Source of the DNA: Vulcanimicrobiota bacterium
GTDB lineage: Bacteria; Vulcanimicrobiota; Xenobia; Xenobiales; JADMJV01
DNA: 64,000 nt
Assembly: GCA_019637395.1 (NCBI GenBank)
Contig: JAHBVR010000016.1
Span: 124,001 to 188,000, forward strand
Direction: 5' to 3'
A program made the translations under genes and the position numbers. Of this stretch, positions 13,843 through 16,868 are shown piece after piece; the stretch's first letter is position 1; every line of letters begins with the position of its first letter. A model generated the notes under the pieces. That model saw nothing but the letters and a program-made list of their open reading frames with translations, had not been told where the DNA came from and searched no databases.

Positions 13843-15039
13843 ATGTACAAGGCTCTTCTGGCCGCGCTCCTGCTTCTCACGGCGGCGGCCGTGGCCGATG
13901 AGGAAGAGCTCAAGCCCGGAGGACTTCCGCCCGGACTGGAACTGGTCGAAAGCGTGCCGCTGGAAACCGAGGCGGCGCTCGACGACCCGTCTATCCGCCA
14001 GACCCAGGAAGTCTGGCTGGAGATGATCAACGGCGCCAGGGAGAGCCTGGATCTCGAATTCTTCTATCTACGGTTCGAGCCCAAGACCTCTTTGGAGCCT
14101 GTGGTGAAGGCCGTGGAAGCGGCCAAAGCGCGCGGCGTACGCGTGCGCGTGCTGGTTGACTCCAAGTTCCTCATCACCTATCCCCAACTCTGGGAACGCT
14201 GGGCGGGACTGGGCATCGAGTTGCGCAAGATCAAGTTTGCCTCGGGCGTACAGCACACCAAGCTGATGCTGGTGGATCGTCAAGAGGTCTTCCTGGGCAG
14301 CCAGAACTTCGACTTCGCCTCCCTTTCCCACATTCGCGAACTGGGCGTGCGCATCACCCAACCGGAGCTGGCCAGTTGTTACCTGCAGGCCTTCGAGCAC
14401 GACTGGGCGGTGGCCGGGGGAGACACCATTCCCCCCAAACTCTCCCCGGTAACAGCCCGCTTTCCGGTCAAAATGGGCGACCTGGAGCTGTTTCCCGTCT
14501 TCAGTCCGAACGACCCTCAGTGGAATGGGGGCAACCCCGAGGAACTGGCGCTGGTGGAGCTGCTGCGTAGCGCTCGCGAGCGTATTGATCTACAGGTGAT
14601 GAGCTATTCACCACTGGTGGTTGCCTATCCCGGCGACGGTCCCATGCCCAAGCGCTACGAAACTCTCGACATCGAACTCAGAGCAGCCGCCGCCCGCGGC
14701 GTCGAGGTGCACCTGCTGGTCAGCAACTGGGGCATCAAGCCGCCCCTGCTGGCTCCGTTAGAAGCTCTCAGCACGGTCCCGCATTTGGAGATCAAGGTCA
14801 GCCACATCCCCGCCTGGAGCGGCGGCGAAATTCCCTTCGCTCGAGTCGGCCACAGCAAGTACCTGGTGGTGGACGGACAGCGCGGCTGGCTGGGCACTTC
14901 CAACTGGGAATACAGCTACTTTATGACCAGTCGCGATATGGGGTTGGCTTTCGAAGGCAAGAGTTTGGCCAGCCGCCTGCAAGCCTTCTTTGAGCGAGAC
15001 TGGGACGGACCCTACGTTCGGCACTTGCCCGGAAAATGA
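13843..15039 (+). CDS. Secreted phospholipase D-like protein
   Basis: 398 residues from ATG 13843, one base after the pepA stop. Signal peptide MYKALLAALLLLTAAAVADE. Two HKD motifs in the expected order: HTKLMLVDRQEVFLGSQNFD near residue 145 and HSKYLVVDGQRGWLGTSNWE near residue 335. PLD-superfamily proteins hydrolyse or transfer phosphodiesters (phospholipids, cardiolipin synthesis, nucleic acids) through a phosphohistidine; the length and architecture also match cardiolipin synthase-like exported PLDs, including eukaryotic PLD3/4-like members. Periplasmic or extracellular. A strong terminator follows immediately. Confidence 0.88.
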   Translation: MYKALLAALLLLTAAAVADEEELKPGGLPPGLELVESVPLETEAALDDPSIRQTQEVWLEMINGARESLDLEFFYLRFEPKTSLEPVVKAVEAAKARGVRVRVLVDSKFLITYPQLWERWAGLGIELRKIKFASGVQHTKLMLVDRQEVFLGSQNFDFASLSHIRELGVRITQPELASCYLQAFEHDWAVAGGDTIPPKLSPVTARFPVKMGDLELFPVFSPNDPQWNGGNPEELALVELLRSARERIDLQVMSYSPLVVAYPGDGPMPKRYETLDIELRAAAARGVEVHLLVSNWGIKPPLLAPLEALSTVPHLEIKVSHIPAWSGGEIPFARVGHSKYLVVDGQRGWLGTSNWEYSYFMTSRDMGLAFEGKSLASRLQAFFERDWDGPYVRHLPGK

Positions 15040-15068
15040 AAAAACCACCCCTTTTGGGATGGTTTTTT
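15040..15068. terminator. Strong bidirectional terminator
   Basis: AAAAAACCACCCC-TTTT-GGGATGGTTTTTT forms a hairpin whose flanks are A6 and T6, so it works on both strands. It ends the pepA-PLD operon and would also end the minus-strand RNA running from 16664. Confidence 0.88.
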
Positions 15069-15092
15069 CATCAACGGTTCCTAGGCCCGTTG

Positions 15093-15144
15093 CTCGTCTT
15101 ACGGCGGACGAGAACCGCCTGACCGCCACCTCGCCAGCGTCAGG
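15093..15144 (-). repeat. Two-hairpin RNA module, copy B
   Basis: As RNA: stem CCUGAC/GUCAGG around the 15-base loop GCUGGCGAGGUGGCG, linker CGGUU, stem CUCGUC/GACGAG around CGCCGUAA. It is the last module before the terminator. See copy A at 15329-15383 for the compensatory changes. Confidence 0.75.
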
Positions 15145-15303
15145 ATCTGAAGTGTGCCGAGGACACACGACAGCCACTCTGAGGCATTTACGTCGACCCA
15201 GCTCGACGGCGCGGTTTGGCCCTGCGCTGCCCTCACCCTTCTCAGATGGGTAGACCTGTCCGATGCAGCAAGCTGACCGGAGAATCGACCGAAGTCAATC
15301 CGA

Positions 15304-15324
15304 TGTGCACTGAGGTCTGGCACA
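15304..15324 (-). other. Octaloop hairpin 5 of the large RNA
   Basis: RNA stem UGUGC/GCACA, inner C-G closing pair (15319/15310), loop AGACCUCA. Members 1-4 are at 16568-16585, about 16405-16426, 16085-16102 and 15861-15876. Loops are the same, stems are not. Confidence 0.65.
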
Positions 15325-15328
15325 ACCC

Positions 15329-15383
15329 CTCGTCTTCACGGCACGGACGAGAACCGCCTGGTCGCCACCTCTCCAGCACCAGG
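15329..15383 (-). repeat. Two-hairpin RNA module, copy A
   Basis: As RNA: stem CCUGGU/ACCAGG around GCUGGAGAGGUGGCG, linker CGGUU, stem CUCGUC/GACGAG around CGUGCCGUGAA. Compared with copy B, two stem pairs change (GU/AC against AC/GU) while the 15-base loop differs at one position, which is what selection on RNA pairing produces. Confidence 0.75.
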
Positions 15384-15594
15384 ACCCGGTGACGTATACG
15401 ACCGAAGTCGATGCGCGCACTGGCCTCTCTACTTAATTTTACGTCCGAGTAGCCAGACGGTGGCCGAAGCCACGGTGATGCTCCTGGTAGTCGCATCACG
15501 GTGCAGACTGCCCGAAGGCGGTAACTGCGGCGGAACAACTTTCGCGTCCGCGTTACGAACCGCAAGCGGCTCGCCCGAGTCCGAAGACTCACGG

Positions 15595-15672
15595 CAGCCC
15601 GAAGGCCTGTGCCGTAGTGGCCAGCCCGAAGGCCTGTGCCGTAGTGGCCAGCCCGGAGGCTGTGCCGTCCGC
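15595..15672 (-). repeat. 27-base tandem repeat inside the large RNA
   Basis: Two identical 27-base units (15595-15621, 15622-15648) and a diverged third (from 15649). As RNA each unit carries GGCCUUCGGGC, a stable UUCG hairpin, and GGCCACUACGGC. The repeat suggests local expansion of a stem rather than coding sequence. Confidence 0.7.
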
Positions 15673-15774
15673 AATGGCTCCAAAGAGCGGTGCGGGGTGC
15701 GCTACTGCCGGAGCAACGAGCGCTGTGGCTCGCCGGAGCGAGACGTGAATCCGCAAGCGGAAATCACTCCACGT

Positions 15775-15839
15775 GCTTTCGCGAACGAAAGCTCCGCGTT
15801 TCGCAAGCGAAGCGCGGGTGTATTTCGCGAACGAAATAC
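15775..15839 (-). other. Three consecutive tetraloop hairpins
   Basis: As RNA, 5' to 3': GUAUUUCG-UUCG-CGAAAUAC (15820-15839), CGCUUCG-CUUG-CGAAACG (15797-15814, one mismatch), GCUUUCG-UUCG-CGAAAGC (15775-15792). All have UUCG- or CUUG-type loops on the minus strand, supporting that strand as the RNA. Confidence 0.7.
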
Positions 15840-16670
15840 GCGTAAACGCGAAGTTCACGCAGCCTGAGGTATGGCCAACCCCTGCCGACCGCACAGGTCT
15901 GAGCAGTATGGCGAATCGCCGAGACAATCGCCAGCACCATTTGCGCGGGGTGCGCCGCGTTACAGGCTAAGGTAGGCTGTCACCCCGTGGTCGTAGGCCC
16001 ACGCACCTGCGAGCCTGTGCGACTCGCCGACAAAAGCACAGCATAACCGGCCCGTCTGATCCCTGGCGGACGGAGTCCGAAGGGGAGCCTGAGGTCTGGC
16101 TCGACCCGCGGAAACTTAAGGCGTCTCTGCATGCCCCGAACGGGATTCGCAATCCCTCGATCCTGCCGCTGAAGCGACCGGTTGCCAGGGTTTTACGTCC
16201 GTGGCGGACGGCGCACGCGGTATGGCGCTACCCAGCACATCTCAGTCGTGCTCACTGCCTGCTACGTGGTTTCCCGCGCAGCAAGCGCCAGTTGCGAGCT
16301 GGCCACTGCGGTGGCCGAAGCCGCCGCGTAGATGATATGGCTCACCGAGGCCTCCGAGACCTGAAGTCCCGAAACGGGAGTGTTTTACGCCTGGCACCCA
16401 AGGCGGCAAACTGAGGTCTGCTGCAACCCTCCGAGTATCAGTTTCTCGGATCTGCCTGGGCCGACCACCACCGGCAACAGGCCCTCACCACGGATGAACG
16501 CACAAGTGCGCTCTTCACTACTGTGTGAGGCCCTGGTCATAGATTAACGAGCCTGAGCCCGGCTCGACCCGCTGAGGTATGCGGGTGACCCCCATCGATA
16601 CGCTATCGAGGAGCGCGACGATTTTCGATATTCGTCGTTCGGTCGGGGTTTTTGGCCCGGCGACTCTCTT

Positions 16671-16699
16671 ATAATAGCCCCGCCAAATTTGACCGTCAA
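16671..16699 (-). promoter_or_regulatory. Near-consensus sigma70 promoter of the large RNA
   Basis: Minus strand TTGACG (16699-16694), 17-base spacer, TATTAT (16676-16671). Expected start at about 16664. The upstream 150 bases are AT-rich, as in strong stable-RNA promoters. It is the best promoter match I noticed in the window. Confidence 0.75.
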
Positions 16700-16794
16700 T
16701 CGCAAACACCCGTTTGTACGCATGTCCCGGTCATGCCTGTACCAAATACCTCATGCGGTCAAGAATTGACGCTTATTCAAGCACAGGCAGCCAA

Positions 16795-16821
16795 AAAAGA
16801 GAAAAAATTAAAAACTCTTTT
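16795..16821 (-). terminator. Terminator-like hairpin after glcF
   Basis: AAAAGAG (16795-16801) and CTCTTTT (16815-16821) flank an AT-rich loop; on the minus strand T-rich sequence follows. It lies 48 bases after the glcF stop and before the large-RNA promoter. Stem is short, so strength is uncertain. Confidence 0.4.
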
Positions 16822-16868
16822 GTGGTCAATTCTGGTTAATACACTTTTAAGCAGCGAGATGAACGCAA

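What the first reader, a model, noticed from the sequence alone, without database searches (positions are those of the whole stretch)
15040..16664. A 1.6 kb structured non-coding RNA of no class I recognise
Sequence shows: no coding frame, nine CUUCGG loops and other UUCG/CUUG hairpins all on the minus strand, near-consensus promoter (TTGACG-17-TATTAT) exactly at one end and a bidirectional terminator at the other. Such size plus complexity is known only for rare large bacterial RNAs (OLE, GOLLD, ROOL and similar). Inference: a new large RNA class in this lineage.
Basis: partly seen in the sequence, partly recalled or inferred. Interest (0 to 1): 0.92.

Follow-up and report, generated by a model that had tools for sequence, protein, structure and literature searches.

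The report
Modular family of giant bacterial RNAs
A 1.6-kilobase stretch with no gene encodes a large folded RNA that belongs to a previously undescribed family: bacteria of one little-studied phylum carry several such RNAs each, built from repeats of one knotted RNA module, and what they do in the cell is unknown.

Summary
Window 16664-15036 (minus) is a structured, non-coding transcription unit with a promoter at its start and a terminator at its end. It has no Rfam match. Homologues occur in all four other genomes of the genus, with paired, not codon, conservation: 107 doubly covarying pairs against 21-45 in shuffles, and the minus strand clearly favoured. This RNA is one of seven paralogous loci in this genome (Candidatus Eremiobacterota / Vulcanimicrobiota). 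Each is an RNA of about 0.35-1.6 kb with one to several tandem copies of a ~160-280-nt module. The module core is a G-rich-loop hairpin followed by H-type pseudoknots. In 131 module copies, one pseudoknot pair that played no part in the model is G-C 88 times and A-U 30 times, with no exception. The family also occurs in a second genus of the same family and in another family of the order. It was not detected in the rest of the phylum, in viral contigs, or (one member each) in phages or plasmids. The function is unknown. I favour a trans-acting chain of compact domains that acts as a multivalent scaffold or binding platform. A CsrA sponge is unlikely: this genome has no detectable csrA.

The parts
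16671..16699 (-). promoter TTGACG-17-TATTAT
   Evidence: TTGACG and 17-nt spacing kept in five genomes; TTGAC promoters at the 5' end of nine other loci checked
15036..16664 (-). whole large structured non-coding RNA (~1.63 kb)
   Evidence: alignment, alifold and shuffle controls; no Rfam match
16634..16664 (-). conserved 5' leader GUCGCCGGGCCAAAAACCCCGACCGAACGA
   Evidence: nearly invariant in five genomes
16568..16594 (-). pseudoknotted octaloop hairpin 1 (GGGGU...CCCGC[AUACCUCA]GCGGG)
   Evidence: motif scan and five-genome alignment
16404..16488 (-). divergent module copy (R3 match, 24 bits)
   Evidence: E = 5e-4; also matched in G001
16376..16404 (-). 8-nt-loop hairpin GCCU[UGGGUGCC]AGGC followed by GUAAAAC
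   Evidence: five-genome alignment
16191..16233 (-). octaloop hairpin plus CGUC...GACG-UAAAA hairpin, a strongly conserved internal block
16085..16108 (-). pseudoknotted octaloop hairpin GGGU...GAGCC[AGACCUCA]GGCUC
15962..15987 (-). pseudoknotted octaloop hairpin (GGGGU...UACCUUA)
15860..15884 (-). pseudoknotted octaloop hairpin GGGGU...GGCC[AUACCUCA]GGCU
15530..15858 (-). variable arms rich in UUCG/CUUG hairpins, mostly missing in G004
15303..15390 (-). module core: G-rich-loop hairpin + pseudoknot PK1 + pseudoknotted octaloop PK2
   Evidence: R3 E = 1.9e-16
15186..15208 (-). hairpin CGUCG[AGCUGGGU]CGACG-UAAAU
15081..15151 (-). last module copy, lacking the octaloop hairpin
   Evidence: R3 E = 2.4e-7; the two 3' copies match the same model R1
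15072..15092 (-). hairpin CAACGG[GCCUAGGAA]CCGUUG; 9-nt loop holding the palindrome CCUAGG, invariant in five genomes
   Evidence: dimerisation role is inference
15036..15071 (.). intrinsic, bidirectional terminator

Best explanation
Shown: the region encodes an independent ~1.6 kb structured RNA unit, one of a paralogous family in large-genome Eremiobacterota. Members are tandem chains of one module: a G-rich-loop hairpin, pseudoknot PK1, a pseudoknotted octaloop hairpin PK2 and an 8-nt-loop hairpin, with a GNRA hairpin in many copies. The units inspected have their own promoter and terminator. Inferred: the RNA acts in trans, not as a leader of a gene. Each module folds into a compact domain that presents the same surface, so the RNA is a multivalent scaffold or binding platform for several copies of one partner, probably a protein or ribonucleoprotein. 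Module number would set how many partners it holds, and the separate paralogues would be kept for different conditions or sizes. The confidence given is for the whole statement including the inferred mechanism; for the shown part alone it is about 0.97.
For: Homologues in 4/4 other genus members, with the same flanking genes in those read. Five-genome covariation and strand asymmetry: -446.7 on the minus strand against -376.3 on the plus strand; G-U cells 257 against A-C cells 36. Seven loci in this genome and 18-27 module hits per genus genome. In 39 modules the covariation score is 0.404 against 0.154 +/- 0.010 shuffled and at most 0.125 for slid partners. In 131 modules an unmodelled PK2 pair is G-C 88 / A-U 30 / other 0. 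Module spacing is mostly 160-280 nt, with one to six hits per locus. TTGAC-type promoters at 10 of 11 loci checked; terminators read at the ends of C6, C3, C1, C5, C36, C35, G006:C145 and G005:C224. Flanking genes are unrelated between paralogues but conserved within orthologue groups.
Against: No transcript, partner or phenotype has been shown. No gene partner co-locates with the loci. The modules in this particular RNA have diverged, so identical binding surfaces are less certain here than in the paralogues. C36 has only a weak folding z-score (-1.2), so the case for it rests on covariation.
Confidence: 0.45

Rival explanations
1. RNA-only homo-oligomer: like OLE, ROOL and GOLLD, the RNA assembles with itself through kissing loops into a cage, dimer or, given the tandem modules, a filament.
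For: Size and pseudoknot density; a terminal hairpin with an invariant palindromic 9-nt loop (CCUAGG) on a stem that changes by paired substitutions. OLE, ROOL and GOLLD form homo-oligomers through kissing loops and A-minor contacts (PMC12286853).
Against: The palindromic loop is only in the orthologues of this locus, not in the paralogues read. It is invariant, so there is no palindrome-switching covariation. A six-base palindrome in one loop can be chance.
Confidence: 0.25
2. A regulatory sponge whose repeated G-rich hairpin loops titrate a small RNA-binding protein, as CsrB does with CsrA.
For: Repeated hairpins with G-rich loops, many with GGA; Hfq is encoded in all five genomes searched.
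Against: No CsrA found in this genome, G001 or G006, though all three have the RNAs. Several of these G-rich loops lack GGA. A sponge needs short sites, not 160-280-nt pseudoknotted domains.
Confidence: 0.12
3. A chain of catalytic or ligand-binding domains, for example self-cleaving units processed into monomers.
For: Compact pseudoknotted repeats with conserved loops.
Against: No match to any known ribozyme or riboswitch. No downstream gene under control in the loci inspected. Nothing here tests catalysis.
Confidence: 0.1
4. A mobile or selfish repeat element spread through the genome.
For: Several copies per genome.
Against: Orthologues keep the same chromosomal place across the genus. Copies are highly diverged paralogues with their own promoters and terminators. 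No match in viral contigs; no match of one member in phages or one paralogue in plasmids. No transposase, integrase or reverse transcriptase was noticed in the flanks read, but a family search for them was not run.
Confidence: 0.04
5. A decayed or unrecognised protein gene.
For: Mechanical ORFs up to 116 aa on the RNA strand.
Against: No ORF is conserved in position; indels ignore the reading frame; pairing covariation.
Confidence: 0.01

Closest known systems
OLE RNA
   Same: large, ornate, stand-alone bacterial RNA of uncertain biochemical function; homo-oligomer by cryo-EM (PMC12286853)
   Different: ~600 nt, one RNA class of Bacillota with known OLE-associated proteins; no Rfam match here; OLE is not known to me as a chain of repeated modules
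GOLLD RNA
   Same: many exceed 800 nt; a conserved 3' part and a less conserved 5' part
   Different: coded in phages and prophages near tRNA islands; no Rfam match here; this one is chromosomal, syntenic and has paralogues
ROOL RNA
   Same: highly structured with several pseudoknots and kissing loops
   Different: phage and prophage coded, octameric cage; no Rfam match here; no tandem modules known to me
CsrB/RsmZ sponge RNAs
   Same: one transcript holding many copies of a hairpin
   Different: short independent hairpins binding CsrA; csrA was not found in this genome
tmRNA (pseudoknot chain)
   Same: several H-type pseudoknots in one stable RNA
   Different: no tRNA-like domain; ARAGORN and Rfam find none here

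Membership tests
Any Rfam 15 family | covariance-model score above gathering | tested here: not met
   finding; paralogues; only a neighbouring RNase P RNA was hit
OLE / GOLLD / ROOL / HEARO | match to the family covariance model | tested here: not met
   these families are in Rfam (for HEARO from my own knowledge); no match
GOLLD / ROOL | location in phage or prophage, often near tRNA islands | tested here: not met
   no tRNA in the window; conserved synteny; no viral or phage hit
OLE / GOLLD / ROOL type RNA-only assembly | homo-oligomerisation | not testable with these tools
   only a palindromic loop as a hint
tmRNA | tRNA-like domain and tag frame | tested here: not met
   ARAGORN
RNase P RNA | match to the bacterial class A model | tested here: not met
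   no match in the window; the genome's RNase P RNA lies elsewhere, C36:54197
CsrA sponge | presence of CsrA in the genome | tested here: not met
This new family | match to the R3 module model, with the PK2 pair as G-C or A-U | tested here: met
   three R3 matches in the finding; PK2 statistics over 131 modules

The most novel reading that the evidence does not exclude
A lineage has evolved a whole gene family of very large RNAs assembled by tandem duplication of one pseudoknotted domain, the RNA counterpart of repeat proteins, which builds cellular scaffolds or RNA-only assemblies whose size is set by module number.
Probability: 0.5. Interest if true: 0.95.

Novelty: categorically new. Interest (0 to 1): 0.87.

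Why it matters
Very few bacterial RNAs of this size and complexity are known, and the known ones are single classes. I found no described case of a paralogous family of long RNAs built by repeating one folded module in different numbers. It would extend to RNA the repeat-protein principle. It also gives a deep natural alignment (131 modules in hand) for structure work, and a concrete set of loci for testing whether bacteria use long RNA as scaffold.

Tried and rejected
Single-strand minimum-energy folding was not relied on alone: z-scores of 200-nt windows are only modest. A kissing model between the ACCU octaloops and the GGGU loops of the second hairpin type was dropped, because those loops do not keep the complement; the GGG(U) just upstream of the same octaloop hairpin does. 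A third pseudoknot (8-nt loop GCUU with downstream AAGC) fits only some modules and is not claimed. R1 and R3 hits in G071, G009 and G012 were set aside as chance: the G012 hit looks coding (my reading of the sequence, no family search run), and G071 and G009 are single weak hits. G005:C117, C248 and C159 hits look coding or random, while G005:C224 is judged real. Searches for a published description of this family found none.

Full report
What is there. The region 16664-15036 on the minus strand lies between a glycolate-oxidase-like gene pair (19600-18146 and 18149-16869, same strand) and a convergent phospholipase-D-like gene ending at 15039 (gene names are my reading of the translations). 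It starts just after TTGACG-17-TATTAT and ends in a bidirectional intrinsic terminator. Nothing in Rfam 15 matches it, and there is no tRNA or tmRNA in the window. Nine of the 36 minus-strand CTTCGG of the 64-kb window fall in these 1.6 kb and none is on the other strand (P about 6e-8). The full sequence folds 7.3 standard deviations below dinucleotide shuffles.

Is it an RNA, and on which strand? It is single copy in its own genome by BLASTN, with homologues in all four other genomes of the genus, in the same gene order in the two read in full. The five sequences align over 1342-1670 nt. RNAalifold gives -446.7 for the minus strand and -376.3 for the plus strand. There are 107 pairs with changes on both sides, against 21-45 in ten column shuffles. 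G-U cells (257) far exceed A-C cells (36), which points to the minus strand as the RNA. ORFs are not shared and indels are not in multiples of three. The limit of this test is that five sequences give little power for any single pair.

A family. A model of the 3' domain (R1) found an internal second copy of the same domain in all five genomes, and another locus in this genome next to a truB-like gene. BLASTN with that locus opened further loci. From 39 copies I built a model of the module core (R3). In this genome R3 hits lie at C1, C3, C5, C6, C8 (the finding), C35 and C36; this genome has 18 hits and the other genus members 20-27 each. Hits are spaced mostly 160-280 nt apart, one to six per locus. 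Flanking genes agree between genomes within an orthologue group and differ between paralogues (contexts). These are therefore old, separately kept loci, not recent repeats. TTGAC-type promoters with 16-18-nt spacing stand at the start of 10 of 11 loci checked. Terminators can be read at the ends of the loci printed.

Anatomy of the module. In order: a hairpin (CCUGG...CCAGG) with a G-rich loop; an H-type pseudoknot PK1 (GGC/GCC crossing a strongly covarying stem that usually starts CUG and ends CAG); GGGGU followed by a hairpin with an octaloop ANACCUNA whose ACC pairs back to the GGG(U) (PK2); a 5-bp hairpin with an 8-nt loop; then variable arms and, in many copies, a GNRA hairpin ACC[GCGA]GGU. 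On 39 sequences, 89% of cells pair. The covariation score is 0.404, against 0.154 shuffled and at most 0.125 with partners slid. The alignment of 131 matches was fitted only to the nested helices. On it, the strongest pair outside the model is the PK2 pair: G-C 88, A-U 30, nothing else. A neighbouring column pair is G/A 114 times and A/G 3 times, which would fit a non-canonical G.A/A.G exchange. PK1 is supported less cleanly (standard pairs in 79-83% of cells), partly because the loop is hard to align.

The RNA of the finding is a diverged member. R3 recognises three modules in it (15390-15303, 15151-15081, 16488-16404). The other octaloop hairpins, at about 16580, 16210, 16100, 15975 and 15870, suggest further worn copies; that count is my reading. 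Its middle holds variable UUCG arms. It ends with a hairpin whose 9-nt loop contains CCUAGG in all five genomes, which resembles a dimer-initiation loop. That is a lead, not a test.

Range. Record titles name one of the organisms Candidatus Eremiobacterota; the current NCBI phylum name is Vulcanimicrobiota. The other genus of the same family (G005) has a ~1.85 kb UUCG-rich RNA at C224 with its own TTGACA-17-TAAATT and terminator. Another family of the order (G006) has several loci, one a five-hit unit of about 1.3 kb. The rest of the phylum (149 genomes in all, searched with stricter filters) gave nothing credible. A strict sequence pattern across one genome for each of 84,980 species found only genus members. 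Viral contigs gave none. One paralogue against plasmids and this RNA against phages also gave none. A single weak hit in G012 looks coding and was set aside.

How it may work. The flanks of different loci share no gene that I could see, the units have their own promoters and terminators, and module number varies. That fits a trans-acting RNA better than a leader or riboswitch. A CsrA sponge is unlikely, since csrA was not found in this genome, G001 or G006; Hfq is present in all five genomes searched. I judge a multivalent scaffold or binding platform most likely (0.45), an RNA-only oligomer next (0.25). No step of either is shown. OLE, ROOL and GOLLD are the nearest known things in size and style (PMC12286853), but no defining feature of theirs that I could test is met.

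What would change my mind. Absence of the transcript, or probing data against the covarying pairs, would remove the claim. Finding the module in an already described RNA class outside Rfam would make it less new; my literature searches found none, but they cover open-access papers only.

Noticed in passing
L131:9375-11240 (G005:C224): A ~1.85 kb relative with many UUCG hairpins, its own promoter and terminator, in a ~2.2 kb gene-free stretch.
   Followed up: partly
L111:2890-4180 (G006:C145): A very regular unit with five module hits in a different family of the order; a good choice for structure work.
   Followed up: partly
L056:3490-4880 (G004:C106): Six module hits in one RNA; orthologues have four or five, so module number changes within an orthologue group.
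   Followed up: partly
L050:1172-1277, L049:5299-5406, L052:4038-4139: In several modules the octaloop carries an inserted hairpin (GGAGGUCGC...GAACUCC or similar).
   Followed up: no
5' ends of paralogues (C3, C5, C35, C36): The RNAs start with GCGGACCUCGA, GCAGACCUCGAG, GCAGACCUGG or GCAGACCUCAG, which repeats the octaloop sequence at the very 5' end.
   Followed up: no
window about 16770-16830 and upstream of other loci: Conserved elements upstream of the promoter: TTGACCACAAA at this locus and TGTAAAC-like words at others; possible regulator site.
   Followed up: no
G000:C36:54197-54567: The RNase P RNA gene lies about 4.5 kb from the C36 paralogue; probably coincidence.
   Followed up: no
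G003:C119:12347 and G005:C177:18055: csrA is present in G003 and G005 but was not found in G000, G001 or G006.
   Followed up: no
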